The notes under the pieces are model-generated. The model did not search any database and was not told the origin of the DNA. It saw only the letters and a program-made list of their open reading frames with translations. From a virus, in IMG/VR virus record IMGVR_UViG_3300043399_000225, positions 1 to 22,050 of that record: a stretch of 22,050 nucleotides of DNA, one strand, 5' to 3'. Both the position numbers and the translations under genes were made by a program. Below are positions 2,846-16,905 of the stretch, piece by piece; the stretch's first letter is position 1, and each line of letters opens with the position of its first letter.

Positions 2846-3199
2846 TTAGTCCTGAGCCCGGCGGAAACCCTCGGCCACGTATTCACGCTGACGACGGACG
2901 CGGTAGTTGCCGGGTGGGACAAGCAGGGTCTCGTGGGTATCGAAACTACGGAGGTGATTGATCTCCGTGGGAGCCTCGACGGAGAGGAACATCTCGTAGA
3001 GGTCGACTTCCTTGACGCCGGCTGGCTTGTAGGCAGTCACACGATCTGCAAGCATCACATGATCATGTCCAGTCTCGGAATGAGCCACGACGATATGGTT
3101 CTTGTTGTTAGCCGGGATGGGCTCAACGTTCGTGGGGATAGAATCCACTCGCATGATGAGGAAGTCACCCTGGGCAGCCATCTTGGTAAAAGTCTTCAT
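2846..3199 (-). CDS. DUF6745-associated small protein, 117 aa
   Basis: Resembles a family of short proteins often encoded beside DUF6745 genes in bacteria. Their common pattern is 'QGDVLLIRVD..P..' near the N terminus, then 'GHDH/GHAH', a Leu/Val-rich strand, and a C-terminal 'LPPGNYRVRRQREY'. Here one sees QGDFLIMRVDSIP (about residues 10-22), SETGHDHVML and VPPGNYRVRRQREYVAEGFR. The role is unknown. The frame stays open far upstream, but ATG 3199 is chosen because AAGGAG lies 7 nt before it. A dedicated promoter (3228-3256) ends inside the last codons of the DUF932 gene. It is followed by DUF6745. Confidence 0.85.
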   Translation of the reverse strand: MKTFTKMAAQGDFLIMRVDSIPTNVEPIPANNKNHIVVAHSETGHDHVMLADRVTAYKPAGVKEVDLYEMFLSVEAPTEINHLRSFDTHETLLVPPGNYRVRRQREYVAEGFRRAQD

Positions 3200-3227: not shown

Positions 3228-3256
3228 ATTATATCAGGCAGCTTCAGCCATGTCAA
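3228..3256 (-). promoter_or_regulatory. sigma70-type promoter embedded in the DUF932 gene end
   Basis: Minus strand TTGACA (3251-3256), 17-nt spacer, TATAAT (3228-3233). The spacer and -35 are also the last codons of the DUF932 protein. It drives the 117-aa protein and DUF6745. Confidence 0.75.
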
Positions 3257-4190: not shown

Positions 4191-4209
4191 TTTTTTACCC
4201 TCTGTTTGT

Positions 4210-4226
4210 ATGGGGACCATCCCCAT
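4210..4226 (-). promoter_or_regulatory. 5'-leader hairpin before the DUF932 gene
   Basis: Perfect inverted repeat ATGGGGA-N3-TCCCCAT. It lies about 5 nt after the predicted transcription start and about 8 nt before the GAGGG ribosome site. It could stabilise the mRNA 5' end or bind a regulator. Confidence 0.5.
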
Positions 4227-4305: not shown

Positions 4306-4482
4306 TTATAGATCCATGAACTTCTTAACGATTCGAATCTCAGAAGCCGTCAGGGGCTTCTCAAAGAGAGCCTTGGTGTGGGCGAAGCGCTCCGCGACAC
4401 GCATGACTGCGTTCGAGAGCTTATCGTCTTTGGTGGTACGAGCGAAGTCATACATCCGATCCAACACTGTAGCAGCGTTCAT
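4306..4482 (-). CDS. Hypothetical protein, 58 aa
   Basis: Small, mostly helical-looking protein MNAATVLDRMYDFARTTKD... with 'LTASEIRIVKKFMDL' at the end; function unknown. The frame continues seven codons upstream, but those residues (MMRKEQT) belong to a leader shared exactly with the gene at 9857-10204. AAGGAA 6-7 nt upstream supports the ATG at 4482. It is a single-gene cassette with its own promoter (4510-4538). Confidence 0.75.
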   Translation of the reverse strand: MNAATVLDRMYDFARTTKDDKLSNAVMRVAERFAHTKALFEKPLTASEIRIVKKFMDL

Positions 4483-4562
4483 AGTCTGTTCCTTCCTCAT
4501 CATAGCCTAACCATAACCCATCCAGATAAAAAAGTCAATACCTGAAAAATCAATGGGTTAGC
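4480..4562 (-). repeat. 83-bp regulatory cassette, copy 1 (identical to 10202-10284)
   Basis: Positions 4480-4562 and 10202-10284 are identical base for base. Each copy spans the half-stem CAATGGGTTAG, the TTGACT-N17-TATGGT promoter, the leader with AAGGAA, and the start ATG of an unrelated gene. Confidence 0.9.
4510..4538 (-). promoter_or_regulatory. cassette promoter
   Basis: Minus strand TTGACT (4533-4538), 17-nt spacer containing TCTGGATGGGT, TATGGT (4510-4515). It serves the 58-aa gene. Confidence 0.75.
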
Positions 4563-4807: not shown

Positions 4808-4838
4808 AGTCAGTCACCTCATTCCTCATCATAGTCAG

Positions 4839-4867
4839 ATTTTAACCCATCCAGATAAAAAAGTCAA
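4839..4867 (-). promoter_or_regulatory. cassette promoter
   Basis: Minus strand TTGACT (4862-4867), 17-nt spacer, TAAAAT (4839-4844). It serves the 85-aa gene. Confidence 0.78.
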
Positions 4868-4877
4868 CCCAACGATA

Positions 4878-4980
4878 TCAATGGGTTAGCCACCCAACAA
4901 ACCTAAGTGGTTGATATGATTAGGAATTTTTTTGCAAAAAAGTTTGAAAAAAATGCTAGCCCAATCATATCAATGGGTTA
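4878..4980 (-). repeat. ~100-bp intergenic module, copy 1 (imperfect copy at 12583-12690)
   Basis: Both copies have the same order of blocks: ATCAATGGGTTAG, then CTAAGTGGTTGATATGATTAGG, then an A-rich tract with AAGTTTGAAAAAAA, then TGCTAGCCCAATCA and TCAATGGG. The first block half and the middle block match almost fully; the spacing of the A tracts differs. Confidence 0.8.
4947..4980 (-). terminator. Rho-independent terminator after the 115-aa gene
   Basis: Minus strand TAACCCA (4974-4980) pairs with TGGGCTA (4957-4963), one A-C mismatch, and is followed by a run of seven T. The hairpin begins with the stop codon of the gene at 4978-5325. Confidence 0.65.
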
Positions 4981-5325: not shown

Positions 5326-5355
5326 GTGTTATCCCTCATTCCTCATCATAGTCCC

Positions 5356-5384
5356 TTTATACCCCATCCAGAGATTAAAGTCAA
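5356..5384 (-). promoter_or_regulatory. cassette promoter
   Basis: Minus strand TTGACT (5379-5384), 17-nt spacer with CTCTGGATGGGG, TATAAA (5356-5361). It serves the 115-aa gene. Confidence 0.8.
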
Positions 5385-5409
5385 TAGGTGTTTTCAGAAC
5401 CAAAATCCA

Positions 5410-8225: not shown

Positions 8226-8256
8226 GTTCTGTTCCTTAGCGCCTGTTGATAGTCAC

Positions 8257-8285
8257 TTTATACCATGGGTAGAATTTAAAGTCAA
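8257..8285 (-). promoter_or_regulatory. cassette promoter
   Basis: Minus strand TTGACT (8280-8285), 17-nt spacer, TATAAA (8257-8262). It serves the cluster 8225-7332. Confidence 0.8.
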
Positions 8286-8305
8286 TCTATCATCTTTAAA
8301 AAAAG

Positions 8306-8536: not shown

Positions 8537-8563
8537 GGTCTGTTCCATCTGCATCATAGGTAT

Positions 8564-8592
8564 ACCTTATACCGTCCAGAGGTTAAAGTCAA
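8564..8592 (-). promoter_or_regulatory. cassette promoter
   Basis: Minus strand TTGACT (8587-8592). The -10 is TAAGGT at 17 nt (8564-8569) or TATAAG at 15 nt (8566-8571). The spacer keeps CTCTGGA. Confidence 0.7.
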
Positions 8593-8601
8593 TAGGGCAT
8601 T

Positions 8602-8811: not shown

Positions 8812-8860
8812 GTCAACCTTATTCCTCACGGGTTGGTTGTCAACCCTTCATCATAATCAG

Positions 8861-8889
8861 ATCTTAACCCATCCAGATAAAAAAGTCAA
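8861..8889 (-). promoter_or_regulatory. cassette promoter
   Basis: Minus strand TTGACT (8884-8889), 17-nt spacer, TAAGAT (8861-8866). It is preceded by two direct CAATGGGTTAG copies (8903-8928). Confidence 0.78.
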
Positions 8890-8932
8890 TACCTGATTTG
8901 TCAATGGGTTAGTCGCCCAATGGGTTAGCGGT

Positions 8933-9019
8933 TGGCGGAGCGACTGGGAGTCGAACCCAGTCTACCCATAAGGTAGTACAGATTAGCAATCTGCTGCATT
9001 CCCGTCCTGCCCTCGCTCC
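8933..9019 (-). tRNA. tRNA-Ser (anticodon GCU)
   Basis: 87-nt class II tRNA. The acceptor GGAGCGA pairs with TCGCTCC, with discriminator G and encoded CCA. The anticodon loop TTGCTAA sits on a GCAGA/TCTGT stem, the variable arm is TACC-TTAT-GGGTA, and the T loop is TTCGACT. It reads AGC and AGU. It is the last member of the leftward tRNA group. Confidence 0.95.
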
Positions 9020-9028
9020 AGATAGTAA

Positions 9029-9098
9029 TACCAGGTAGAGGTACTGCCCCTCTCACATAAGATCGTATGAAGATCCATGGATCCTTGATCGACCTGGT
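9029..9098 (-). ncRNA. tRNA-like element (degenerate or non-canonical tRNA)
   Basis: The minus strand can form ACCAGGT/ACCTGGT (7 bp), GATC...GATC (4 bp), CATA/TATG (4 bp, six-base loop) and AGAGG/CCTCT (5 bp, loop GGCAGTA) in tRNA order and at tRNA length. It lies 3 nt after tRNA-Ile(GAU) and 9 nt before tRNA-Ser. There is no encoded CCA, no TTC-type T loop and no clear 7-nt anticodon loop, so it is probably a decayed tRNA or a spacer fold. Confidence 0.4.
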
Positions 9099-9101
9099 GT
9101 A

Positions 9102-9175
9102 TGGTAGACCCAACAGGTAACGCTCCTGTGTCTATCGCTTATCAAGCGAGTGCTCTACTATTGAGCTATGGGTCC
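9102..9175 (-). tRNA. tRNA-Ile (anticodon GAU), atypical T loop
   Basis: 74-nt cloverleaf. The acceptor is GGACCCA/TGGGTCT (G1:U72), with discriminator A and encoded CCA. The D arm is GCTC/GAGC. The anticodon loop TTGATAA sits on a stem whose first pair is mismatched. The T stem ACAGG/CCTGT carries loop AGCGTTA instead of the usual TTCRANY. It reads AUC and AUU. The odd T loop may weaken its detection or activity. Confidence 0.75.
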
Positions 9176-9470: not shown

Positions 9471-9545
9471 TGGTAGACCAGACAGGACTTGAACCTGCAA
9501 CCTGGAGATTAAGAGTCTCTCGCTCTACCGTTGAGCTACTGGTCC
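9471..9545 (-). tRNA. tRNA-Lys (anticodon CUU)
   Basis: 75-nt cloverleaf. The acceptor is GGACCAG/CTGGTCT (G1:U72), with discriminator A and encoded CCA. The D arm is GCTC/GAGC, the anticodon stem is AGAGA/TCTCC (first pair mismatched) with loop CTCTTAA, and the T loop is TTCAAGT. It reads AAG. Confidence 0.9.
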
Positions 9546-9741: not shown

Positions 9742-9793
9742 CTTATCCGTTCCTTGTCAGGAGAGACCACCCTTGATCTCTCATCATAGTCAG

Positions 9794-9822
9794 ATCCTAA
9801 CCCATCCAGATAAAAAAGTCAA
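9794..9822 (-). promoter_or_regulatory. cassette promoter of the tRNA-Lys/Ile/Ser transcript
   Basis: Minus strand TTGACT (9817-9822), 17-nt spacer with TCTGGATGGGT, TAGGAT (9794-9799). Confidence 0.78.
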
Positions 9823-9856
9823 TACCTGATTCATCAATGGGTTAGGCACTCATGGG

Positions 9857-10204
9857 TTAGTTAGAGGCTTTAGCCTTCTCGGCAGCGACCTCGTTGATCT
9901 GGCGCCAGTACTTTGTTAGGCGCATCTCACCCCGCTCGTTACCTTCCAGCCACCTCTGAACCTGCCAGGACTCGAGCTTCTTATGCTTGATGTAGTACTT
10001 AGCGGTGATGGAGCCGCTCTTAGCGTCGCCTGCGGTGAACCCACGATTGTTGTTAACGTTTGTATCATTCGAAGCCCGTTCCGTCTCCGTCTGACGCTTG
10101 AAGAGCGCCACCAGTGCGCGACCCACGATGTGCTGCAGCTTGACAGGATCCGGAGTGGTACGAACGTAAGCGTCGAAGGCGCGGCGGTTGGCGAAGAGCG
10201 TCAT
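9857..10204 (-). CDS. Conserved phage/plasmid hypothetical protein, 115 aa
   Basis: Basic protein with VGRALVALFKRQTETERASN (about residues 28-47), then NNNRGFTAGDAKSGSITAKYY and KHKKLESWQVQRWL, ending RLTKYWRQINEVAAEK. I recall this pattern (RAL..LF.RQT..E......N..GFTG.DA.SG...AKYY..H..L..WQ...W) from many phage and plasmid proteins of unknown role. GC-rich. The start at 10204 follows the shared leader with AAGGAA 6-7 nt upstream. Confidence 0.85.
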   Translation of the reverse strand: MTLFANRRAFDAYVRTTPDPVKLQHIVGRALVALFKRQTETERASNDTNVNNNRGFTAGDAKSGSITAKYYIKHKKLESWQVQRWLEGNERGEMRLTKYWRQINEVAAEKAKASN

Positions 10205-10284
10205 AGTCTGTTCCTTCCTCATCATAGCCTAACCATAACCCATCCAGATAAAAAAGTCAATACCTGAAAAATCAATGGGTTAGC
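10202..10284 (-). repeat. 83-bp regulatory cassette, copy 2 (identical to 4480-4562)
   Basis: Exact copy of 4480-4562, here joined to a different gene (9857-10204). Cassette promoter, leader and start codon are shared; the coding sequences are unrelated. Confidence 0.9.
10232..10260 (-). promoter_or_regulatory. cassette promoter
   Basis: Minus strand TTGACT (10255-10260), 17-nt spacer, TATGGT (10232-10237). Confidence 0.75.
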
Positions 10285-10465: not shown

Positions 10466-10653
10466 ATTAGATCATTCTCATAGTCATGTACGCTTGATTT
10501 AGTAGTAAACATGATTTCATGCTGTATCACGTTGATCTGTTCACTGACTGTTTCCCAGACATGTAGAGTAACGCTCTCTAGTTCATGAGTATGTAACTTA
10601 GTCAGACATCGCGATACGGGGTTGACTCGAATCTCGTCCCATGCGCTATTCAT
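10462..10653 (-). CDS. Small hypothetical protein, 63 aa, downstream of array A
   Basis: MNSAWDEIRVNPVSRCLTKL, followed by VTLHVWETVSEQINVIQ. Its ATG overlaps the stop of the last array A repeat ORF, so it is probably read by the same ribosomes. The 'VWETVSEQI' stretch keeps a V-W-x-x-V spacing like the repeats. Function unknown. Confidence 0.65.
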   Translation of the reverse strand: MNSAWDEIRVNPVSRCLTKLHTHELESVTLHVWETVSEQINVIQHEIMFTTKSSVHDYENDLI

Positions 10654-10811
10654 AATCTATCATCCCTGACTTGATTCCAGACTTTATTCCAGACTTGATT
10701 CTTGACTTGATCCATGACTTGATCCATGACTTGATTCCTGACTTGTAACCTGACTTGACTATCAACTTGATTCTTGACTTGATTCCAGACTTGATTCTTG
10801 ACTTGATTCAT
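10650..10811 (-). CDS. Tetrapeptide-repeat (NQVx) protein A4, 53 aa
   Basis: Almost the whole protein is [N/D/S]-Q-V-x repeats: MNQVKNQVWNQVKNQVDSQV, then RLQVRNQVMDQV and so on, ending RDDRL. One repeat is altered to WNKV. ATGA overlaps link it to the ORFs on both sides. Unknown function; coding is supported by unbroken frame, the conserved DDRL end and the overlaps. Confidence 0.65.
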   Translation of the reverse strand: MNQVKNQVWNQVKNQVDSQVRLQVRNQVMDQVMDQVKNQVWNKVWNQVRDDRL

Positions 10812-10993
10812 AATCTATCATCCCTGACTTGATTCTTGACTCGATCCCTGACTTGACCATAGACTTGATTTTCGATTTGATCATAGACTTGATTCAAGAC
10901 TTGATTTTCGATTTGATCATAGACTTGATTCAAGACTTGATTCCAGACTTGACTATCAACTTGATTCTTGACTTGATTCTCGATTTGATTCAT
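10808..10993 (-). CDS. Tetrapeptide-repeat (NQVx) protein A3, 61 aa
   Basis: MNQIENQVKNQVDSQVWNQV followed by further repeats, including two copies of a longer block LNQVYDQIENQV. That shows expansion by units larger than 12 bp. It ends RDDRL. The start overlaps the 17-aa ORF stop and the stop overlaps the next start (ATGA). Confidence 0.68.
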   Translation of the reverse strand: MNQIENQVKNQVDSQVWNQVLNQVYDQIENQVLNQVYDQIENQVYGQVRDRVKNQVRDDRL

Positions 10994-11043
10994 AATCTAT
11001 CATCCCTGACTTGATTCCAGACTTGATTCTTGACTCTATTCAT
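10990..11043 (-). CDS. Tetrapeptide-repeat mini-protein A2, 17 aa
   Basis: MNRVKNQVWNQVRDDRL: a complete minimal unit with start, three repeats and the DDRL end, joined by ATGA overlaps to both neighbours. It is too small to call a gene alone. It shows that the repeat number between the fixed ends can shrink. Confidence 0.5.
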   Translation of the reverse strand: MNRVKNQVWNQVRDDRL

Positions 11044-11225
11044 AGTCTATCATCCCAGACTTGACCATAGACTTGATCATAGACTTGACCATAGACTTGA
11101 CCATAGACTTGAATCCAGACTTGATTCTTGACTTGATTCCAGACTCGATCCCTGTCGCGATCCCAGACTTGATTCCTGACTTGATCGTAGACTTGATTCC
11201 AGACTTGATTCTCGATTCTATCCAT
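11040..11225 (-). CDS. Tetrapeptide-repeat (NQVx) protein A1, 61 aa
   Basis: First ORF of array A: MDRIENQVWNQVYDQVRNQV, then WDRDRDRVWNQV and YGQV repeats, ending VWDDRL. AGGA lies 8 nt before the ATG, the only clear ribosome site in the array. Translation of the following ORFs may depend on coupling from here. The near-consensus promoter at 11265-11292 lies just upstream. Confidence 0.7.
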   Translation of the reverse strand: MDRIENQVWNQVYDQVRNQVWDRDRDRVWNQVKNQVWIQVYGQVYGQVYDQVYGQVWDDRL

Positions 11226-11264
11226 ACCAGTGATCCTATACCATTACCATTGGCTCAATACCTG

Positions 11265-11292
11265 ATTATACATACTTCTGGATAAATGTCAA
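11265..11292 (-). promoter_or_regulatory. sigma70-type promoter of array A
   Basis: Minus strand TTGACA (11287-11292), 16-nt spacer, TATAAT (11265-11270). It is close to consensus and unlike the TCTGG-spacer cassette type. Confidence 0.78.
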
Positions 11293-11313
11293 CCTAGTTT
11301 TGTACATCACTCA

Positions 11314-11342
11314 TAAAAAAACCAGGGAGATTATCCCTGGTT
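11314..11342 (-). terminator. Rho-independent terminator of the 11366-11897 transcript
   Basis: Minus strand ACCAGGGA-loop-TCCCTGGT stem (five-base loop) followed by a run of seven T. It insulates array A from the genes upstream. Confidence 0.88.
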
Positions 11343-11365
11343 GAGTAGTAGTAATGATAGTTAGT

Positions 11366-11674
11366 TTAAGCCTTGCCGAACTTCTTGCCAAGACGTTCAA
11401 ATTCTTTTCGTTCAGCCTCTTCTGTCTTCACAGCGGCATATTCTTCTATTTCAATACGTTGAGCCATCTCTGCATCTGTTTCCGAGCGAATCGCCATGAG
11501 TGCCATGTATGTGTCATCATTATACGAATAAAACCTGGTCTCAAAGAAAGCGTTACCACCAACCTCTTCACGATACTTCTGAAGGCGTGTAAGCACTTCA
11601 TCCAGAGTATCGTAGTCGAGGTTGATCTGAGCATGCTCGACTGCAATCATCTTGCGTTCACGGTTCACGGACAT
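11366..11674 (-). CDS. Hypothetical protein, 102 aa
   Basis: MSVNRERKMIAVEHAQINLD, then a helical region LDEVLTRLQKYREEVGGNAF, then ETRFYSYNDDTYMALMAIRS, and a long charged C-terminal helix (EIEEYAAVKTEEAERKEF... ending KKFGKA). It is probably a strand plus coiled-coil-prone helix. Unknown function. AAGGA lies 7 nt before ATG 11674. The reading frame extends far upstream, but that stretch lies in the neighbouring gene. Confidence 0.78.
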   Translation of the reverse strand: MSVNRERKMIAVEHAQINLDYDTLDEVLTRLQKYREEVGGNAFFETRFYSYNDDTYMALMAIRSETDAEMAQRIEIEEYAAVKTEEAERKEFERLGKKFGKA

Positions 11675-11684
11675 GTCCTGATCC

Positions 11685-11897
11685 TTAACCACGGTTCTTG
11701 CGGAGGTAGACGTACAGGGCGCCAGTATATTTGTTACACTTGACGGATAGAAGAACACCAAAATCTTTTGCTTCACAATACAACTGAGAGATAAAATCAT
11801 CTTCAGCTTGATTGATCTGAACATAGTCAAAGATATTAGTCCTTGACTTACCATAGACCTCAAGTTCATCCCAGACGTCGTCGCTGTAGAAGGTCAT
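11685..11897 (-). CDS. Hypothetical protein, 70 aa
   Basis: MTFYSDDVWDELEVYGKSRT, followed by INQAEDDFISQLYCEAKDFG, then a strand pair ending GALYVYLRKNRG. An acidic alpha/beta small protein of unknown role. AAGGA lies 7 nt before the ATG in the leader common to these cassettes. It is followed 10 nt later by the 102-aa gene. Confidence 0.78.
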   Translation of the reverse strand: MTFYSDDVWDELEVYGKSRTNIFDYVQINQAEDDFISQLYCEAKDFGVLLSVKCNKYTGALYVYLRKNRG

Positions 11898-11927
11898 GTC
11901 CTGTTCCTTGGTGGTGTTCATAGTCAT

Positions 11928-11956
11928 CTTATACCATAGCCAGAGATTAAAGTCAA
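11928..11956 (-). promoter_or_regulatory. cassette promoter
   Basis: Minus strand TTGACT (11951-11956), 17-nt spacer, TATAAG (11928-11933). It serves the 70-aa and 102-aa genes. Confidence 0.8.
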
Positions 11957-11972
11957 TAGGTGAGCGGCTTTG

Positions 11973-12194
11973 TCACTTGACGCCTCGCCGCGAGGCCCAC
12001 TCCTCAGCCCACTTGATGTTCTTCTGGACATACGCCTTCAGAGCGGCGGTCTGCTTCTTGGTGAGCTTGAGATCGGGGTCATGCGCCATATCAGCCACCA
12101 TGGAGTGCAACCAGCCGATGGCGTAGTCAGAGCCGATGTCGCTACGGAGGACGTCGGTGAGCTTCGTCATGTCGGCGAGGATGGTGGAGGTCAT
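11973..12194 (-). CDS. Hypothetical protein, 73 aa
   Basis: MTSTILADMTKLTDVLRSDI, then a mostly helical body (GWLHSMVADMAHDPDLKLTK) and a basic end EWASRRGVK. GC-rich. The start at 12194 has AGGA 9 nt upstream; earlier in-frame ATGs belong to the stereotyped leader that follows the promoter. Unknown function. Confidence 0.75.
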   Translation of the reverse strand: MTSTILADMTKLTDVLRSDIGSDYAIGWLHSMVADMAHDPDLKLTKKQTAALKAYVQKNIKWAEEWASRRGVK

Positions 12195-12221
12195 GCCAGT
12201 CATTCCTGTGTTCATAGTCAG

Positions 12222-12250
12222 ATCCTAACCCATTCAGAGATTAAAGTCAA
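12222..12250 (-). promoter_or_regulatory. cassette promoter
   Basis: Minus strand TTGACT (12245-12250), 17-nt spacer, TAGGAT (12222-12227). It serves the 73-aa gene. Confidence 0.78.
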
Positions 12251-12277
12251 CAAGGGATTTTGAAATCCCGACAGGCT

Positions 12278-12517
12278 TTAGACCACCCGGTCCATGTCCC
12301 ACCACGAGTCCTTGATGGCCTTGTAGGCGGCGTCGTACGAGTCGAAGTGGGTAGCGAACTCGGAGAAGCCCCGCTCCTCCCACGCCGGCATGGCCCACTC
12401 GGGCTCGGACTGGTTCCAGTAGCCGAACGTTTCGATGGTGAACTTGCCGTTGACGTAGGCGCCCTCCTCGGAGATGCGGATGCAGCCGAAGAGGTGGTCG
12501 GTGGAGGTGGTGGTCAT
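12278..12517 (-). CDS. Hypothetical protein, 79 aa
   Basis: MTTTSTDHLFGCIRISEEGA, a beta-rich first half (YVNGKFTIETFGYWN), then EPEWAMPAWEERGFSEFATH and a helical DSYDAAYKAIKDSWWDMD. Very GC-rich for this window. GAGGA lies 7 nt before the ATG. It is the leftward gene nearest the divergence zone. No family recognised. Confidence 0.78.
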   Translation of the reverse strand: MTTTSTDHLFGCIRISEEGAYVNGKFTIETFGYWNQSEPEWAMPAWEERGFSEFATHFDSYDAAYKAIKDSWWDMDRVV

Positions 12518-12541
12518 GATCAGTTCCTCGTTCATAGTCAG

Positions 12542-12570
12542 ATCCTATATCGACCAGCTAAAAAAGTCAA
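12542..12570 (-). promoter_or_regulatory. cassette promoter
   Basis: Minus strand TTGACT (12565-12570), 17-nt spacer, TAGGAT (12542-12547). It serves the 79-aa gene. Confidence 0.75.
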
Positions 12571-12582
12571 CCGTGACATATC

Positions 12583-12690
12583 AATGGGTTAGGACCCCGA
12601 GGACGCTAAGTGGTTGATATGATTAGGAAAAAAGTTTGAAAAAAATCTGAAAAAAATGCTAGCCCAATCACGTCAATGGGCTAGCTGCTT
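12583..12690 (-). repeat. ~100-bp intergenic module, copy 2 (see 4878-4980)
   Basis: Imperfect copy of 4878-4980, with an extra A-rich stretch and a stronger stem (GCTAGCCCA/TGGGCTAGC). Confidence 0.8.
12645..12685 (-). terminator. Minus-strand terminator at the left edge of the divergence zone
   Basis: GCTAGCCCA (12658-12666) pairs perfectly with TGGGCTAGC (12677-12685). On the minus strand the stem is followed by T-rich tracts. No minus-strand gene lies upstream, so it would stop transcripts coming out of the gene-free zone. Confidence 0.65.
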
Positions 12691-12978
12691 AGAGGGTATC
12701 TGGGCCACCTAAGCTATCTTGGCTGTATAGTAACCCAACATTTTAGCCTAACGTGACCAGAAGCCATCAAACAAGAGTTTGGCCCAAAATGGCCATCTCA
12801 GACCGTCTGAAAACGGCCCGAAACTGCCCAAAAACGGCCCGCGATGAACCCAAAAGCAGCTTCCAGATGGTGTGAAAATTACCATCATTTTAGTTCAATG
12901 CGCGAGTGTAGCCCACGCTCTTACGTAGCGCGATACGCTCTTACGTAGCTAAAAAAGTTCAAAAAAGTTTTGATAATC
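12686..12978. other. Gene-free divergence zone with repeats
   Basis: No supported ORF lies here; transcription leaves leftward and rightward on either side. It holds the direct repeat CGCTCTTACGTAGC (twice within about 12918-12952), a duplicated AAAACGGCCCG motif (about 12816-12842), GGCC-rich small palindromes near 12782, and an A-rich right edge. A replication origin, a regulatory region or an untranslated RNA are all possible. Confidence 0.6.
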
Positions 12979-13021
12979 ATATCAATGGGTTAACCCGCTT
13001 GACGACCTAACCCATTGATAT
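12979..13021. promoter_or_regulatory. 14-bp stem-loop before the first rightward promoter
   Basis: ATATCAATGGGTTA (12979-12992) and its exact reverse complement (13008-13021) flank a 15-nt loop. On the minus strand it is followed by a T-rich tract. On the plus strand it lies 7 nt before the -35 of the next promoter, the stem-loop/promoter arrangement of the cassettes. Confidence 0.8.
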
Positions 13022-13028
13022 CGTTGAG

Positions 13029-13057
13029 TTGACTTAATATGGGATAAGAGGTATAAG
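13029..13057 (+). promoter_or_regulatory. cassette promoter, rightward
   Basis: TTGACT (13029-13034), 17-nt spacer, TATAAG (13052-13057). An ATG follows the -10 immediately, so that ATG cannot be the usual translation start. Confidence 0.8.
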
Positions 13058-13102
13058 ATGACTATGAACACAGGAACGACCGACCCTTATAAGGAACTGC
13101 TG

Positions 13103-13294
13103 ATGCTGACCATGACCAACCGCTTCGACACCATCATCAACCTTGACACCGCTGCTGAAATCCTCGAGAAGGTTCGGAACCAGCTCCAGGACATGGCCTG
13201 CCCGCAGTACATGGATGATCAGGTTAAAAACCTGCTCAACCAGCTCGACGAGCTTCGGTACCAGGTCCTGAACGAGGACCTGGCCGAGGGCTAA
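13103..13294 (+). CDS. Hypothetical protein, 63 aa
   Basis: MLTMTNRFDTIINLDTAAEI, followed by LEKVRNQLQDMACPQYMDDQ and KNLLNQLDELRYQVLNEDLAEG. It is a helical, probably coiled-coil protein with heptad-like Leu spacing. The frame opens at 13058, but that ATG abuts the -10. The ATG at 13103 has AAGGA 7 nt upstream and lies at a normal distance from the promoter. Unknown function. First rightward gene. Confidence 0.72.
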   Translation: MLTMTNRFDTIINLDTAAEILEKVRNQLQDMACPQYMDDQVKNLLNQLDELRYQVLNEDLAEG

Positions 13295-13301
13295 GAGCCT
13301 G

Positions 13302-13330
13302 TTGACTTTAATCTCTAAGCCGGTTAAGAT
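13302..13330 (+). promoter_or_regulatory. cassette promoter of the AAA+ ATPase
   Basis: TTGACT (13302-13307), 17-nt spacer with ATCTCT, TAAGAT (13325-13330). Confidence 0.8.
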
Positions 13331-13365
13331 CAGACTCAACGACAGACACAGACAAGGATACTGAC

Positions 13366-14247
13366 ATGCCCCGTGGTGTTCCCCGCGCCGGTTACCGCAA
13401 GCCTCGCCAGTCCAAGATGGACAAGACCGCTCAGCTGGCTAAGATCATGAACGTCCAGGCGCCGGCTGAGCCGGTCGTGGTTGAGACTGATGAGGAGATC
13501 GAACAGAAGCTGAACGATCGCTTCGAGGTCCTGGCTGACATGACGGAAGCAGCCACCGACGGTGCGGTACGTTCCATGATTGTCTCGGGTCCAGGTGGTC
13601 TCGGCAAGTCCTACACCGTGGAGCGTGTCCTGAACTCCTGGGATCCCAATGCCGTCAATCACACCGTGATCCGTGGGTTCGTCAAGGTGACCGGTCTCTT
13701 TAAGCTCCTGTATCAGAACCGTGCTCCTGGTCAGGTGCTGGTGTTCGACGACGCTGACTCCGTGTTCCTGGACGACGTGTCAGTCAATCTGCTCAAGGCG
13801 GTGTGCGACTCCACCGAGAAGCGTATCGTGTCTTACATGTCTGAAGGTGTGCTGATCGACGACGAGAGCGCCGAGCGTCTGCCCAAGTCTTTCGAGTTTG
13901 AGGGTACCATCATCTTCATCACCAACATGGACTTCGACGGCATGATCGACCGCGGGTCGAAGCTGGCTCCTCACCTCGAGGCCATGCTGACTCGGTCTCA
14001 CTATATCGACCTGGCAATGAAGACTCGACGTGACTACATCATCCGGATCAAGCAGGTGGTTGCCGCTGGCATACTCCGTGGTCGTGGTCTGGATGCCGAG
14101 GCCGAGACTGACGTGATGGAGTTCATTGACGAGAACCAGGACTGCCTCCGTGAACTCTCCCTCCGCATGGCCATCAAGCTGGCAGACATCCGTAAGAGGA
14201 ACTCTAAGACCTGGAAGAAGACGGCTCGTGTCACCTGCTGTAAGTGA
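13366..14247 (+). CDS. AAA+ family ATPase, 293 aa
   Basis: Walker A GPGGLGKS (residues 75-82), Walker B VLVFDDAD (124-131), sensor-1 TIIFITN (N187) and a likely arginine finger at R210 (MLTRSHYIDL) define an AAA+ core of about residues 60-230. A small helical lid domain follows (RELSLRMAIKLADIRKR). The basic N terminus MPRGVPRAGYRKPRQSKM may bind nucleic acid. Similar stand-alone AAA+ ATPases are common in large phages; their partners are mostly unknown. GC-rich, with AAGGA 8 nt before the ATG. Array B follows 4 nt after its stop, so repeat ORFs and ATPase are probably cotranscribed. That hints that the ATPase may act with the repeat proteins (inference). Confidence 0.93.
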   Translation: MPRGVPRAGYRKPRQSKMDKTAQLAKIMNVQAPAEPVVVETDEEIEQKLNDRFEVLADMTEAATDGAVRSMIVSGPGGLGKSYTVERVLNSWDPNAVNHTVIRGFVKVTGLFKLLYQNRAPGQVLVFDDADSVFLDDVSVNLLKAVCDSTEKRIVSYMSEGVLIDDESAERLPKSFEFEGTIIFITNMDFDGMIDRGSKLAPHLEAMLTRSHYIDLAMKTRRDYIIRIKQVVAAGILRGRGLDAEAETDVMEFIDENQDCLRELSLRMAIKLADIRKRNSKTWKKTARVTCCK

Positions 14248-14251
14248 TGAT

Positions 14252-14377
14252 ATGAAACGTTTCATTGATCAAGTCCGGAGTCAAGTCCTGAATCAAGTCG
14301 GGAATCAAGTCGGGAATCAAGTCTGGAATCAAGTCAGGGATCGAGTCTTGAGTCAAGTCTTGGATGATAGACTATGA
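14252..14377 (+). CDS. Tetrapeptide-repeat (NQVx) protein B1, 41 aa
   Basis: First ORF of array B. A unique opening, MKRFIDQVRS, leads into QVLNQVGNQVGNQVWNQV and ends LDDRL. The start lies 4 nt after the ATPase stop, within reach of terminating ribosomes, and its stop overlaps the next ATG. Confidence 0.68.
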   Translation: MKRFIDQVRSQVLNQVGNQVGNQVWNQVRDRVLSQVLDDRL

Positions 14378-14523
14378 ATCAAGCCATGCATAAAGTCAGG
14401 AATCAAGTCTGGAATCAAGTCAGGGATCGAGTCTTGAGTCAAGTCTGGAATCAAGTAGAGAGTCAAGTCTGGAATCAAGTCAGGGATCGAGTCTTGAGTC
14501 AAGTCTTGGATGATAGACTATGA
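14374..14523 (+). CDS. Tetrapeptide-repeat (NQVx) protein B2, 49 aa
   Basis: MNQAMHKVRNQVWNQVRDRV followed by repeats, ending LSQVLDDRL. The block WNQVRDRVLSQV occurs twice here and once in B1, showing recent duplication of larger units. ATGA overlaps at both ends. Confidence 0.66.
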   Translation: MNQAMHKVRNQVWNQVRDRVLSQVWNQVESQVWNQVRDRVLSQVLDDRL

Positions 14524-14765
14524 ATCAAGCCATGCATAAAGTCAGGAATCAAGTCATGAATCAAGTCATGAATCTAGTCCATGATCAAGCCATGCATAAA
14601 GTCTGGAATCAAGTCTACGATCAAGTCAGGAATCAAGTCTGGAATCAAGCCAAGAATCAAGTCGGGAATCAAGTCTGGAATCAAGTCAAGAATCAAGTCT
14701 TGAATCAGGTCGTGAGTCAAGTCAAGAATAAAATCAAGAATCAAGACTTGGATGATAGACTATGA
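14520..14765 (+). CDS. Tetrapeptide-repeat (NQVx) protein B3, 81 aa
   Basis: Longest repeat ORF: about 20 tetrads. It opens MNQAMHKVRNQVMNQVMNLV, repeats an internal DQAMHKV, and ends KNQDLDDRL. The last repeats are degenerate (VSQV, KNKI). ATGA overlaps at both ends. Confidence 0.7.
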   Translation: MNQAMHKVRNQVMNQVMNLVHDQAMHKVWNQVYDQVRNQVWNQAKNQVGNQVWNQVKNQVLNQVVSQVKNKIKNQDLDDRL

Positions 14766-14854
14766 ATCAAGCCATGCATAAAATCGAGAGTCAAGTCATG
14801 AATCAAGTCGAAGATCAAAAATCAAAGGTTGACTTTAATCCGAGTATGGATTAA
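14762..14854 (+). CDS. Short, partly degenerate repeat ORF B4, 30 aa
   Basis: Starts MNQAMHKIESQVMNQVEDQK, like B2 and B3, then leaves the repeat (SKVDFNPSMD). The unusual end is encoded by the promoter at 14829-14857, so a cassette promoter seems to have replaced the 3' part of a repeat ORF. Confidence 0.5.
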   Translation: MNQAMHKIESQVMNQVEDQKSKVDFNPSMD

Positions 14855-14857
14855 AGT
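14829..14857 (+). promoter_or_regulatory. cassette promoter inside array B
   Basis: TTGACT (14829-14834), 17-nt spacer, TAAAGT (14852-14857). It starts a new transcript for the 77-aa gene and the second repeat block. Confidence 0.75.
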
Positions 14858-14881
14858 CTTAACATGGTATGGAGAGATGAG

Positions 14882-15115
14882 ATGTCTGACGTGTATGACC
14901 TGGTGACTGAACTGAGTGAGTCTACTATCGATGCGTTCGAGGATCCATGCAAAACCATCGCTATCTTTGAGAACTTCGTCAGTGGTCTGGAACGACACCT
15001 AGATCTAGACGAGGCTCGCGTGACTAAACTTAAAAACTATTTGCGACTCAACATAGACATCGTCAATGACATGGGTAAAGCTCTTAGAGATAATAAGGTT
15101 AAACCAGAGTCATGA
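14882..15115 (+). CDS. Acidic hypothetical protein, 77 aa
   Basis: MSDVYDLVTELSESTIDAFE, then KTIAIFENFVSGLERHLDLD and a basic helical end (KLKNYLRLNIDIVNDMGKAL). It is helical and not made of NQVx repeats. GGAG lies 7-8 nt before ATG 14882; the ATG at 14864 would fall at the transcription start. Its stop overlaps the start of B5. Unknown function. Confidence 0.76.
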   Translation: MSDVYDLVTELSESTIDAFEDPCKTIAIFENFVSGLERHLDLDEARVTKLKNYLRLNIDIVNDMGKALRDNKVKPES

Positions 15116-15249
15116 ATCAAGTCTGGAATCAAGTCGAGAATCAAGTCGAGAATCAAGTCTGGAATCAAGTCGCGATTCAAGTCAGGGATCAAGTCTGGAA
15201 TCAAGTCTATGGTCAAGTCTATGATCAAGTCTGGGATGATAGTCTATGA
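15112..15249 (+). CDS. Tetrapeptide-repeat (NQVx) protein B5, 45 aa
   Basis: MNQVWNQVENQVENQVWNQV, then AIQVRDQVWNQV and YGQVYDQV, ending VWDDSL (DDSL instead of DDRL). ATGA overlaps at both ends. Confidence 0.66.
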   Translation: MNQVWNQVENQVENQVWNQVAIQVRDQVWNQVYGQVYDQVWDDSL

Positions 15250-15434
15250 ATCAAGTCTGCGATCAAGTCTATGGTCAAGTCTGGAGTCAAGTCAGGTTAC
15301 AAGTCTATGGTCAAGTCTGGGATCAAGTCTGGAATCAAGTCGAGAGTCAAGTCTATGGTCAAGTCTGGAGTCAAGTCAGGTTACAAGTCGAGAATCAAGT
15401 CTGGAATCAAGTCGGGAATCAAGTTAGGGATTAA
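15246..15434 (+). CDS. Tetrapeptide-repeat (NQVx) protein B6, 62 aa
   Basis: MNQVCDQVYGQVWSQVRLQV; the block YGQVWSQVRLQV occurs twice. It ends GNQVRD, where a TAA replaces the usual codon before DDRL. A second open frame here (MVKSMIKSG..., serine-rich) is a shadow of the repeat. After the stop, a six-codon ATG...TAG remnant (15438-15458) leads to the next gene. Confidence 0.66.
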   Translation: MNQVCDQVYGQVWSQVRLQVYGQVWDQVWNQVESQVYGQVWSQVRLQVENQVWNQVGNQVRD

Positions 15435-15460
15435 GTCATGAATGAAGATCGTACGTAGCT

Positions 15461-15646
15461 ATGAATAAAGTATGCACGAAACTCAGCTATGATCCTTGGG
15501 ATGAAGCATACGTGAATGTTCAAGTAGCATTCATGCATGAACGTGCATCTTACGAGAACGTCTTCGAAAACACGCATCGCGAAGTCTCCGACGTGATCGA
15601 TACGATTTTAGCACGCATCAATGAAGCATCACACGGCGACGATTAA
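15461..15646 (+). CDS. Small hypothetical protein, 61 aa
   Basis: MNKVCTKLSYDPWDEAYVNV, then AFMHERASYENVFENTHREV and SDVIDTILARINEASHGDD. A helical acidic protein. The junction before its ATG (TAGCTATGAATAAAG) resembles the repeat-ORF junctions, so it appears to continue the chain. No strong ribosome site. Unknown function. Confidence 0.62.
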   Translation: MNKVCTKLSYDPWDEAYVNVQVAFMHERASYENVFENTHREVSDVIDTILARINEASHGDD

Positions 15647-15665
15647 TTTTTACTCAATAAAGAAT

Positions 15666-15715
15666 TAGTTCGACATAGAACTATTATTTGCCATAATAGT
15701 TCGACATAGAACTAT
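15666..15715 (+). repeat. Two direct copies of a small hairpin
   Basis: TAGTTC-GACATA-GAACTA at 15666-15683 and ATAGTTC-GACATA-GAACTAT at 15696-15715, 12 nt apart. The gap 15647-15775 holds nothing else recognisable. It could be a protein-binding site pair or a weak transcript end; no T-run follows. Confidence 0.65.
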
Positions 15716-15775
15716 ATAATCGGGTATCCATCACTGTTATCGATATTTTTCCGTGCAAGAACTTCTTTCTCGCCA

Positions 15776-15804
15776 TTGACTATCCTGGTTTTTTGTCGTA
15801 TAAT
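15776..15804 (+). promoter_or_regulatory. sigma70-type promoter, near consensus
   Basis: TTGACT (15776-15781), 17-nt spacer, TATAAT (15799-15804). It starts the transcript running to the terminator at 17376-17400. Confidence 0.83.
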
Positions 15805-15834
15805 ATCCTATATCAATAGATAGTGGAGTATATC

Positions 15835-16038
15835 TTGATCGGTGTCAATAGTAGTTTATATAATACTAGTAAGATCACGAGTCGTGTAAATGATGTAGTA
15901 AAGGATTCAGTAATCTCTTCTGCTGTCATAGATACGATTGAGTCTAGTATTATTGATCAAGTTAAGTCTAATGTTATTGATCAAATCTGGAATCGAGTCT
16001 ATTATTCAACATTCGATAAAGTGAGTGATGGTCTATGA
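15835..16038 (+). CDS. Hypothetical protein, 67 aa, possibly a diverged repeat protein
   Basis: Starts at TTG 15835, with GGAG 6 nt upstream; GTG 15823 is an alternative. IGVNSSLYNTSKITSRVNDV is followed by SSAVIDTIESSIIDQVKSNV and IDQIWNRVYYSTFDKVSDGL. The later part keeps [I/V]-[x]-D-Q-[V/I]-x spacing and W-N-R-V, so it looks like an eroded NQVx protein, and it ends DGL near the usual DDRL position. The stop overlaps the next ATG. Confidence 0.6.
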   Translation: MIGVNSSLYNTSKITSRVNDVVKDSVISSAVIDTIESSIIDQVKSNVIDQIWNRVYYSTFDKVSDGL

Positions 16039-16181
16039 GACCAGTTCGTTATAAAGACTTGATCGATCCTAAGATCTTAGAGATGAAGATCGATGACTCG
16101 GTATTAAATGGCTTAAAGCCTGATAATAGGTTAAATCAGATTTGGTTAAATGTCTTTATCCGAGTCGGGGAGTCGTATTAA
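16035..16181 (+). CDS. Small hypothetical protein, 48 aa
   Basis: MRPVRYKDLIDPKILEMKID, then DSVLNGLKPDNRLNQIWLNV and FIRVGESY. ATGA overlap with the gene before; the next repeat ORF starts 3 nt after its stop. 'NQIWLNV' recalls the repeat tetrads. Unknown function. Confidence 0.55.
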   Translation: MRPVRYKDLIDPKILEMKIDDSVLNGLKPDNRLNQIWLNVFIRVGESY

Positions 16182-16184
16182 GTC

Positions 16185-16418
16185 ATGGATCAAGTCAGGT
16201 TTCAAATCATGAATCAAGTCCGGAATCGAGTCTTGAATCAAGTCATGAATCAAGTCCGGAATCAAGTTGATAGTCAAGTCTGGGATCAAGTCTGGAATCA
16301 AGTCGAGAGTCAAGTCTGGAATCAAGTCTATAATCGAGTCTGGAATCGAGTCAAGAATCAAGTCTGGGATCAAATCGGGAATCAAATCGGGAATCAAGTC
16401 AGGGATAATAGATTATGA
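16185..16418 (+). CDS. Tetrapeptide-repeat (NQVx) protein B7, 77 aa
   Basis: MDQVRFQIMNQVRNRVLNQV, about 18 further tetrads (DSQVWDQVWNQV, YNRVWNRV, WDQIGNQIGNQV) and the end RDNRL. It starts 3 nt after the preceding stop and ends in an ATGA overlap with the next gene. Confidence 0.7.
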   Translation: MDQVRFQIMNQVRNRVLNQVMNQVRNQVDSQVWDQVWNQVESQVWNQVYNRVWNRVKNQVWDQIGNQIGNQVRDNRL

Positions 16419-16582
16419 TGCAAGAAGTTTATAGCAAAATAGTTCATCATGTTTATTATGACGCCATGTCTATGACTGTTAAACACCCAGTAACGTATGA
16501 GATCAGAAAAAAAACTTTCCATATCGATGTTATCTGGGACGAAGTGAGGGGTAACGTGTATGCTGAACTCCATGAGTATTGA
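16415..16582 (+). CDS. Small hypothetical protein, 55 aa
   Basis: MMQEVYSKIVHHVYYDAMSM, then a basic segment KHPVTYEIRKKTF, and IDVIWDEVRGNVYAELHEY. The last part repeats V/I-W-D-x-V-x-x-x-V like the NQVx proteins. The start overlaps the stop of B7; the next gene's ATG lies inside its end. Unknown function. Confidence 0.58.
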   Translation: MMQEVYSKIVHHVYYDAMSMTVKHPVTYEIRKKTFHIDVIWDEVRGNVYAELHEY

Positions 16583-16727
16583 TACTAAAAATATGCTAAA
16601 ACAAGTAGAAAACGATATCTGGTCCAAAGCAATAGATAGTATAGTATATGATATTATAGTAAAATTTGATAATCGTATATTTTTCGATATAGAAGATGCT
16701 CTCAGAGACTGCTATGAAGAGCATTAA
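16572..16727 (+). CDS. Small hypothetical protein, 51 aa
   Basis: MSIDTKNMLKQVENDIWSKA, IDSIVYDIIVKFDNRIFFDI and EDALRDCYEEH. Periodic V/I every four residues (LKQVENDIWSKAIDSIVYDI) is again reminiscent of the repeat family. It overlaps genes on both sides; AT-rich. No strong ribosome site. Confidence 0.55.
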   Translation: MSIDTKNMLKQVENDIWSKAIDSIVYDIIVKFDNRIFFDIEDALRDCYEEH

Positions 16728-16905
16728 AACCCCTGTAAGAGAACTTATACATCATGACGTCATGGATACAGTGTGGTGTGGTGACGTTGTGAATAACATG
16801 ACTTGGTGGAAAATATATAAGACTATCGACGTGGCTGATATCGTTAACCCATTGATCATAGGTGTAGATGATGCAATCCGTATCACTCAAACAAAATCCA
16901 ATTAG
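16714..16905 (+). CDS. Small hypothetical protein, 63 aa
   Basis: MKSIKTPVRELIHHDVMDTV, then a Trp-rich WCGDVVNNMTWWKIYKTIDV and ADIVNPLIIGVDDAIRI. The start may be 16714 or 16696; the former overlaps the stop of the preceding ORF. Unknown function. Confidence 0.58.
   Translation: MKSIKTPVRELIHHDVMDTVWCGDVVNNMTWWKIYKTIDVADIVNPLIIGVDDAIRITQTKSN

What the first reader, a model, noticed from the sequence alone, without database searches (positions are those of the whole stretch)
10650..16418. Two outward-facing arrays of short proteins made only of an NQVx tetrapeptide repeat
About ten ORFs of 17-81 aa consist almost entirely of (N/D/S)-Q-V-x repeats from a 12-bp DNA unit. Array A is on the minus strand, array B on the plus, on opposite sides of the divergence zone and next to an AAA+ ATPase. 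Codon 4 varies among many residues (W, R, K, E, Y, M, G, L, C, A) while Q-V is fixed: a constant scaffold with one variable face. This could be a diversified set of small phage effectors or binding peptides. I know of no described system of this kind.
Basis: partly seen in the sequence, partly recalled or inferred. Interest (0 to 1): 0.92.

Follow-up and report, generated by a model that had tools for sequence, protein, structure and literature searches.

The report
Phage arrays of four-residue-repeat microproteins
A phage carries rapidly reshuffled rows of tiny proteins built from one four-amino-acid repeat, and in other phages and bacteria the same repeat sits inside an uncharacterised protein (DUF6745) that this phage also encodes, pointing to an undescribed two-part protein system with a constant core and an interchangeable, variable set of parts.

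Summary
Eleven ATGA-coupled ORFs (17-81 aa) of (N/D)-Q-V-x repeats lie in two outward-facing arrays. They are proteins, not a DNA or RNA repeat. Over 3250 repeat units, 4 in-frame stops were seen against 201 expected, while shifted frames match expectation. Unrelated phages encode the same repeat with different codons, and one relative fuses it in frame to a conserved tail. New here: in other contigs the same tract lies inside DUF6745 proteins. Tract-in-DUF6745 (cis) and stand-alone arrays (trans) never co-occurred in the loci examined. DUF6745 is present in 38 of 48 array-bearing viral records but in none of 49 array-less relatives. A third gene adjoins DUF6745 in 80 of 80 loci fetched blind to the repeat. 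The window holds all three parts. Varied positions are n and x, changed almost only by amino-acid replacement (80 non-synonymous, 1 synonymous). The best reading is a constant core (DUF6745 plus partner) with a recombination-diversified repertoire of tetrad-repeat helices, perhaps gripped as Sus1 grips the Sac3 helix. Protein status and the DUF6745 link are well supported; the molecular role is inferred. The closest precedent, an internal tetrapeptide tract in mycobacteriophage Tweety gp54, also has no known function.

The parts
11040..11225 (-). Array A, ORF 1: NQVx microprotein, 61 aa
   Evidence: 12/12 sigma-70-like promoter 40 nt upstream
10990..11043 (-). Array A, ORF 2: 17 aa NQVx mini-ORF
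   Evidence: ATGA overlaps on both sides
10808..10993 (-). Array A, ORF 3: NQVx microprotein, 61 aa
10650..10811 (-). Array A, ORF 4: NQVx microprotein, 53 aa
10462..10653 (-). Small ORF coupled to the end of array A (ATGA); possibly a decayed member, its period-4 signal is not significant on its own
   Evidence: p = 0.41
11265..11292 (-). TTGACA-N16-TATAAT promoter-like site just upstream of array A
   Evidence: 12 of 12 matches; a terminator-like stem lies upstream at 11342-11320
14252..14377 (+). Array B, ORF 1: NQVx microprotein, 41 aa, 4 nt after the AAA+ gene
14374..14523 (+). Array B, ORF 2: NQVx microprotein, 49 aa
   Evidence: gene-scale duplication unit of 146 bp, 3.3 copies
14520..14765 (+). 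Array B, ORF 3: NQVx microprotein, 81 aa
14762..14854 (+). Array B, ORF 4: short decayed copy, 30 aa
15112..15249 (+). Array B, ORF 5: NQVx microprotein, 45 aa, coupled to 14864-15115
15246..15434 (+). Array B, ORF 6: NQVx microprotein, 62 aa
16185..16418 (+). Array B, ORF 7: NQVx microprotein, 77 aa; AlphaFold2 model is one long helix
15823..16038 (+). Probable diverged tetrad member (ends ...IDQVKSNVIDQIWNRVYYSTFDKV)
   Evidence: period-4 power 0.77 against 0.24 shuffled, p 0.048
16560..16727 (+). Diverged tetrad-periodic microprotein without DNA-level repeat
   Evidence: period-4 power 1.39 against 0.23 shuffled, 0 of 500 shuffles
16711..16905 (+). Small ORF whose C-terminal tail (ADIVNPLIIGVDDAIRITQTKSN) is fused in frame to an NQVx protein in relative L130
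1947..2798 (-). DUF6745 protein (PF20530), 283 aa, without internal tract: proposed core partner of the arrays
   Evidence: E 2e-36, 125.6 bits, cut-off 27
2846..3199 (-). Conserved partner gene just upstream of DUF6745 (QGD...TGHDH...QREY motif), 117 aa
   Evidence: next to DUF6745 in 80 of 80 blind loci; consensus promoter-like site 3256-3228
13366..14247 (+). AAA+ ATPase (phrog_1250) at the head of array B; neighbour, probably not part of the system

Best explanation
SHOWN: the arrays encode a family of phage microproteins built on a tetrad with one aliphatic residue every four (n-Q-V-x), made as translationally coupled tandem genes that turn over quickly. The same tract is an internal, length-variable insert in DUF6745 proteins elsewhere. 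In the loci examined it exists either inside DUF6745 or as separate arrays near a tract-less DUF6745, never both, and a third small gene adjoins DUF6745. INFERRED: the stand-alone proteins are the trans-acting form of the DUF6745 tract and work with the DUF6745-plus-partner core. Each is a long helix whose aliphatic stripe winds around it and is gripped by the core, as Sus1 hairpins grip the four-residue-repeat helix of yeast Sac3. The n and x positions then vary freely on the outside. Unequal crossing-over and conversion between 12-bp repeats, plus gene-scale duplication, give each phage its own repertoire of variants. These most likely act as interchangeable adaptors or decoys towards changing host (or rival phage) proteins, which would explain why amino-acid replacement, not silent change, dominates.
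For: Protein level: in-frame stops at x 4 seen against 200.8 expected (window 0 against 12.3), with frames +1, +2 and antisense at expectation. Each locus is near-uniform in its own codons but loci differ (CAA-GTC, CAG-GTT, CAA-GTG, CAG-GTA ...). Variant scaffolds NQLx, DRVx and SSLx keep one aliphatic per four residues. In L064, 16 array ORFs with two or fewer strict repeat steps still have 83% V/I/L/M/F at the V position against 54% in shuffles. In-frame fusion to a conserved tail. Link to DUF6745: 38 of 48 array records against 0 of 49 array-less relatives, Fisher p 5e-18; within phrog_1250 phages 12 of 15 against 0 of 49, p 1e-10. Cis and trans are exclusive: 36 DUF6745 with tract, none with arrays; 34 of 36 tract-less with arrays. 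Blind to the repeat, 52 of 80 DUF6745 loci (37 of 47 clusters) have arrays, 30 clusters within 120 bp. Cis/trans changes at least twice, most simply five times, on the DUF6745 tree. Partner gene adjoins DUF6745 in 80 of 80. Coupling: 75 neighbouring pairs overlap by ATGA. Variation: x and n 80 non-synonymous against 1 synonymous; Q and V 15 against 5. Helix: AlphaFold2 single helix, pLDDT 91.5. Precedent: Sac3 helix with a four-residue repeat gives a right-handed hydrophobic stripe bound by Sus1 (PMC2726291). A solenoid in place of the tract: Deinococcus DUF6745 proteins carry an LRR-like N-terminal half.
Against: No physical interaction, expression or phenotype is shown. The helix model is weak evidence: AlphaFold2 tends to draw helices for repeats (own knowledge), the tract inside DUF6745 scores only about 52-67, and Chou-Fasman means favour strand slightly (1.12 against 1.02). 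One 102.6-kb array-bearing contig (G010) has no detectable DUF6745. In the window the arrays lie 8-14 kb from DUF6745. The non-synonymous excess could come from shuffling of old repeat variants rather than present-day selection. Among the blind 80, 28 loci lack strict NQVx ORFs nearby; some have diverged tetrad proteins instead, some show none within 9 kb. Cis and trans forms are partly separated by phylogeny, so exclusivity is not all independent.
Confidence: 0.45

Rival explanations
1. The tetrad proteins are substrates, not adaptors: DUF6745 and/or the partner gene modifies the repeat (a RiPP-like or structural peptide system), with substrate in cis in some hosts and in trans in array phages.
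For: Many short coupled ORFs with conserved caps and a variable body resemble precursor peptides. On five plasmids (Streptomyces x2, Deinococcus x3) the partner gene plus DUF6745 sit beside the STM4011-STM4015 cluster, which includes two radical-SAM proteins in the Deinococcus cases. DUF6745 has invariant H, D, E, W and C residues.
Against: No radical-SAM gene was identified in the window. No Cys or Ser/Thr-rich core, no protease-site pattern. The only distant hit of the DUF6745 profile to a RiPP protein (MbnC) is not significant (E 0.37). Aliphatic periodicity is kept in diverged members, which suits folding or binding rather than a linear substrate.
Confidence: 0.15
2. The arrays are expanding repeats that persist because they encode a harmless or weakly useful helix (a near-neutral linker or expression spacer) with no repertoire function.
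For: Copy number differs between relatives with a 94% identical neighbouring ATPase; tract length in DUF6745 ranges from 6 to 82 repeat steps; repeats are homogenised within loci.
Against: Strong depletion of stops, preserved register and residue classes in members that no longer repeat at DNA level, replacement-biased change at two positions only, tight linkage to DUF6745.
Confidence: 0.25
3. A DNA- or RNA-level repeat (replication iterons, recombination or regulatory array near the divergence zone) that happens to be open in one frame.
For: 12-bp unit, arrays on both sides of the strand switch near the GC-skew minimum, near-uniform codons inside each locus.
Against: Codons differ between loci while the peptide is kept, stops are depleted only in the NQVx frame, the frame continues into a conserved tail in L130, and the same tract is read inside DUF6745.
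Confidence: 0.03
4. Structural or assembly proteins (for example filament-forming or virion components) made in many near-equivalent copies.
For: Repetitive N/Q-rich sequence and beta-favouring composition could polymerise.
Against: Neighbours are replication and nucleotide-metabolism genes, not virion genes; array A has its own near-perfect host-type promoter, typical of early genes; no structural-family match.
Confidence: 0.1

Closest known systems
Mycobacteriophage Tweety gp54 / Che8 gp57 / PMC gp51 tetrapeptide-repeat protein (PMC2884959)
   Same: 12-bp unit read as a tetrapeptide; two residues fixed, two variable; third codon positions conserved while first and second vary; W and G among the variable residues; copy number differs between phages; function unknown.
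   Different: One internal alanine-rich tract (AA-G/W/Q-S/Y) in one protein; no stand-alone coupled arrays; not a DUF6745 protein and no DUF6745 or partner homology in gp53-gp56.
DUF6745 (Pfam PF20530)
   Same: The window encodes a member above cut-off; in other members the same tract is an internal insert.
   Different: The Pfam model covers only the C-terminal part; no paper in the searched library names it, and I found no description of the cis tract, the trans arrays or the partner gene.
Yeast Sac3 CID helix with Sus1 (PMC2726291)
   Same: Works-like only: a long helix with an approximate four-residue repeat that winds a hydrophobic stripe around it for wrapping partners.
   Different: No homology; eukaryotic mRNA export; the repeat there is short and irregular.
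Pentapeptide-repeat and leucine-rich-repeat solenoids
   Same: Short repeats with a fixed buried position and variable surface positions; an LRR-like half replaces the tract region in Deinococcus DUF6745 proteins.
   Different: Period is 4, not 5 or about 22; no match of NQVx proteins to those families.
PHROG families phrog_5189 and phrog_33514 (unknown function)
   Same: Weak matches of 12 and 5 of 51 NQVx proteins.
   Different: Unnamed small families; matches are short and partly compositional.

Membership tests
DUF6745 (PF20530), for window 1947-2798 | Domain match above the Pfam gathering score | tested here: met
   125.6 bits against cut-off 27, E 2e-36
DUF6745 (PF20530), for the NQVx ORFs | Domain match | tested here: not met
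   No PF20530 match to the NQVx ORFs scanned; they correspond only to the insert that some DUF6745 proteins carry
Tweety gp54-type tetrapeptide tract | 12-bp in-frame unit with two fixed and two variable residues, third codon positions conserved | tested here: met
   searches compared with PMC2884959
Tweety gp54-type tetrapeptide tract | Tract internal to a protein with the Tweety gp54 N- and C-terminal domains | tested here: not met
   Stand-alone ORFs here; gp54 shows no DUF6745 or partner similarity and no Pfam domain
Pentapeptide-repeat proteins | Five-residue period A(D/N)LXX | tested here: not met
   Hydrophobic spectrum peaks at 4.0 and its harmonic 2.0, 0.06 at 5.0; no Pfam pentapeptide match
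Coiled coil (heptad or hendecad) | Hydrophobic period 3.5 to 3.67 | tested here: not met
   Power 0.12 at 3.5 and 0.22 at 3.67 against 2.93 at 4.0
Diversity-generating retroelement target | Reverse transcriptase, template repeat and adenine-directed variation | tested here: inconclusive
   Changes are whole-codon replacements not confined to adenines; reverse transcriptase and template repeat were not searched for systematically
Known anti-phage defence protein (PADLOC) | Model match | tested here: not met
   No match for the NQVx ORF, window DUF6745 or AAA+ proteins scanned
RiPP precursor array | Leader-core peptides with a modifying enzyme that acts on them | not testable with these tools
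   Needs biochemistry; only neighbourhood hints

The most novel reading that the evidence does not exclude
A phage-encoded combinatorial protein system: one constant core (DUF6745 plus its partner) is supplied with a recombination-diversified repertoire of interchangeable tetrad-repeat helices, each presenting a different surface to host or rival-phage proteins, and the same module exists in bacteria and prophages as a single fused polypeptide.
Probability: 0.3. Interest if true: 0.95.

Novelty: categorically new. Interest (0 to 1): 0.85.

Why it matters
It would be a widespread module of phages, prophages and plasmids with no described counterpart: proteins made on a four-residue period that matched no named family searched here, delivered either inside a core protein or as a fast-evolving gene array. 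It gives DUF6745, a domain with no paper in the searched library, a testable set of partners, and it gives a long-noted oddity (tetrapeptide tracts whose variation falls on codon positions 1 and 2, reported for Tweety gp54 in 2007) a genomic context in which function can be tested. If the repertoire idea holds, it is a protein-based diversification strategy that does not resemble the known ones (retroelements, tail-fibre switching, toxin cassettes).

Tried and rejected
DNA or RNA repeat: rejected by the stop test, codon differences and tail fusion. AAA+ ATPase as the functional partner: most phrog_1250 loci have no arrays. BLAST against deposited phages found one prophage only or nothing, because BLAST masks the repeat. 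PDB sequence searches gave only compositional hits such as the (GQMP)n tract of an ARID protein. Foldseek and VIA-align of the DUF6745 model gave no convincing relative outside DUF6745 and uncharacterised phage proteins; the VIA rows matched mainly the low-confidence tract helices. A first in-frame stop count on pre-selected ORFs was circular and was replaced by the unbiased unit scan. Shine-Dalgarno sequence in the C-terminal caps as the reason for cap conservation: only slightly stronger before starts than inside tracts (p 0.006) and absent in several phages, so the ATGA overlap is the consistent feature. Period-2 excess in L064 as proof of beta strand: not conclusive, since two-residue register slips give the same signal. 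A pooled substitution count mixed paralogous repeats and was replaced by independent between-contig pairs. Literature searches on DUF6745, the repeat strings, STM4011-4015 and tandem small phage genes returned nothing direct. Searches failed on input limits.
Full report
1. What is there. The window is a fragment of an uncultivated T4-like phage (PhoH-like protein, exonucleases and a clamp-loader-like AAA+ ATPase by PHROG or BLAST, tRNAs). Between 10650 and 16418 lie eleven ORFs of 17-81 aa made of (N/D/S/G)-Q-V-x tetrads from a 12-bp unit: four on the minus strand and seven on the plus strand, facing outward from a strand switch at about 12.6-13.05 kb, near the GC-skew minimum. Successive ORFs overlap as ATGA and most end in DDRL. 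Array A has a 12-of-12 sigma-70-like promoter at 11292-11265 just upstream and a terminator-like hairpin before that.

2. They are proteins. The circular way to count stops (inside chosen ORFs) was discarded. Instead every CARRTN-xxx-nnn-CARRT unit lying in a run was taken from all loci without regard to frame, and stops expected from base composition were compared with those seen: 4 against 200.8 at x in 3250 units (window: 0 against 12.3). In the +1 and +2 frames the counts were 88 against 78 and 356 against 360, and antisense-stop triplets 13 against 8.9. Each locus uses nearly one codon for Q and one for V, but loci differ: CAA-GTC, CAG-GTT, CAA-GTG, CAG-GTA and others. Arrays are thus homogenised within a genome while the peptide is kept between genomes. 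Other scaffolds keep one aliphatic residue per four: NQLx in L171, L174 and L202, DRVx in L303, DQLx/GQLx in prophage prophiGD102-1 gp38 and SSLx in MW202476.

3. From perfect repeats to diverged members. L064 holds a row of about twenty coupled ORFs, most ending in QNIKL or a close variant, from perfect NQVx to ORFs without obvious repeat. In 16 of the latter 83% of the V positions are V, I, L, M or F against 54% in shuffles, and the Q, n and x positions keep their residue classes. The hydrophobic spectrum of all array members peaks at 4.0 and its harmonic 2.0, with nothing at heptad or hendecad periods. In the window, 16560-16727 shows the same period (0 of 500 shuffles reach it), and 15823-16038 weakly (p 0.048). 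In L273, a phage with DUF6745 and no strict NQVx ORF nearby, a 66-aa ORF has a very strong four-residue period (P4 3.10).

4. Close relatives. L128 is the same phage. L129 and L130 have a 94% identical AAA+ protein, but at the corresponding places a different number of NQVx ORFs with sequences that do not align one to one. In L130 one NQVx ORF runs in frame into ...ADIINPLIICIDDEIHITQTRSN, which in the window is the tail of a non-repeat small ORF (...ADIVNPLIIGVDDAIRITQTKSN). In eleven independent pairs of related array ORFs from different contigs, x and n differ by 80 non-synonymous and 1 synonymous codon changes, Q and V by 15 and 5 (Fisher p 0.001). Many are whole-codon replacements (TGG to AGT, AAC to TGG), so conversion from neighbouring repeats is likely; this may reflect old selected variation being shuffled rather than new mutation.

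5. The link to DUF6745. A degenerate DNA pattern found 119 or more viral stretches of two kinds: arrays of stand-alone ORFs, and long proteins with an internal tract. The long proteins are DUF6745 (PF20530), and alignment shows the tract inserted at one site between the N-terminal region and the C-terminal domain. The window's own DUF6745 protein (1947-2798) aligns to both flanks and lacks the tract.

6. Testing the link. (a) DUF6745 is found in 38 of 48 array-bearing viral records. Among 50 records of phrog_1250 phages taken as array-less it is found in one, and that one (L162) carries an NQVx ORF; so 0 of 49 (p 5e-18). Within phrog_1250 phages alone it is 12 of 15 against 0 of 49 (p 1e-10). 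(b) Among loci fetched by the repeat or by the ATPase, 36 DUF6745 proteins carry the tract and none has stand-alone arrays beside it, while 34 of 36 tract-less ones do, 33 on the same strand. (c) Fetched by DUF6745 alone, blind to the repeat, 80 of 80 are tract-less by the strict measure (L301 keeps a very short QV tract), and 52 (37 of 47 clusters) have strict NQVx ORFs, 30 clusters within 120 bp. (d) On a quick tree of 91 DUF6745 domains the cis/trans state changes at least twice on strongly supported branches and five times in the simplest count, so exclusivity is partly but not only phylogenetic. Exception: a 102.6-kb array contig with no DUF6745 by a sensitive profile; the other array records without it are shorter fragments.

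7. A third part. Just upstream of DUF6745 lies a gene for a protein of about 100-120 aa with a QGD...TGHxH...QREY pattern, with no Pfam or NCBIfam name (PHROG phrog_27831, unknown). It adjoins DUF6745 on the same strand in 80 of 80 blind loci and 24 of 36 tract-bearing loci, many of which are cut contigs. In the window it is 2846-3199, behind a consensus promoter-like site. Microcystis phage Ma-LMM01 has the pair as gp175-gp174. On plasmids of two Streptomyces and three Deinococcus the pair stands next to the STM4011-STM4015 cluster, and the Deinococcus proteins have an LRR-like N-terminal half.

8. Where it occurs. A pattern typical of stand-alone members hit 36 viral stretches and 3 of the GTDB genome collection; of these three one is a true array, on a 16-kb contig that also carries tract-less DUF6745, and one is a tract-bearing DUF6745. 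PF20530 was found in 2 of 296 genomes of that bin's phylum, one of them the bin itself. Stand-alone arrays are therefore essentially viral. Gene neighbours in other phages are mostly nucleotide and DNA metabolism genes.

9. How it may work. AlphaFold2 gives a single helix for 16185-16418 (pLDDT 91.5), and two long low-confidence helices for the tract inside DUF6745. A strict four-residue period on a 3.6-residue helix makes the V stripe wind around the helix. This arrangement is known: the Sac3 CID helix has an approximate four-residue repeat that forms a right-handed hydrophobic stripe, gripped by Sus1 hairpins (PMC2726291). My inference is that the DUF6745 core grips tetrad helices through the V stripe, in cis or in trans, and that n and x provide a variable outside surface. 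Composition slightly favours strand, so a beta arrangement is not excluded. Tandem duplication (a 146-bp unit in array B) and repeat exchange would give a changing repertoire. Shown: coding, coupling, periodicity, variation at n and x, linkage to DUF6745 and partner, cis/trans exclusivity in the loci examined. Inferred: physical association, helix gripping, adaptor or decoy role.

10. Comparison with the known. The nearest published sequence is Tweety gp54, with a 12-bp tetrapeptide tract, variation on codon positions 1 and 2 only, different copy numbers between phages, and unknown function (PMC2884959). It shares the style of tract but not the arrays, DUF6745 or the partner. No paper in the searched library names DUF6745. 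I rate the system categorically new because its combination of parts matches nothing described that I could find; the tract alone would be a new variant of the Tweety kind.

Noticed in passing
window 4479-4562, 4808-4891, 8830-8913, 9763-9846, 10201-10284; also 5333-5393, 8234-8294, 8541-8601, 11916-11957, 12210-12251, 12530-12571: A repeated promoter-like cassette (minus strand TTGACTTTTTTATCTGGATGGGTTA...ATGATG) stands before many minus-strand genes; two copies 5.7 kb apart (4479-4562 and 10201-10284) are identical over 84 nt.
   Followed up: partly
L312, L313, L319, L320, L321 (Streptomyces and Deinococcus plasmids): The partner gene plus DUF6745 adjoin the STM4011-STM4015 cluster (radical-SAM proteins, hydrolase, STM4014/4015) in two phyla; no paper in the library names two or more genes of that cluster.
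   Followed up: partly
window 3234-4226 (-): TIGR03299 phage/plasmid-like protein (phrog_1221) directly upstream of the partner gene and DUF6745; a relative lies within 2 kb of DUF6745 in 22 of the 80 blind loci.
   Followed up: partly
L118 about 10861-10885: A repeat run with three in-frame TAG codons at x, the only clear break of the open frame in the whole unit scan; could be a non-coding strand, a decayed array or a recoded stop.
   Followed up: no
L064 88-5638: A row of about twenty coupled small genes with a common QNIKL-like end, from perfect repeats to fully diverged; a natural series for structure prediction and for studying how new small genes arise.
   Followed up: partly
window 8933-9175 and 9471-9545: Three tRNA-like genes on the minus strand (Ser, one reported only by Rfam at 9105-9175, Lys) between small genes.
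   Followed up: no
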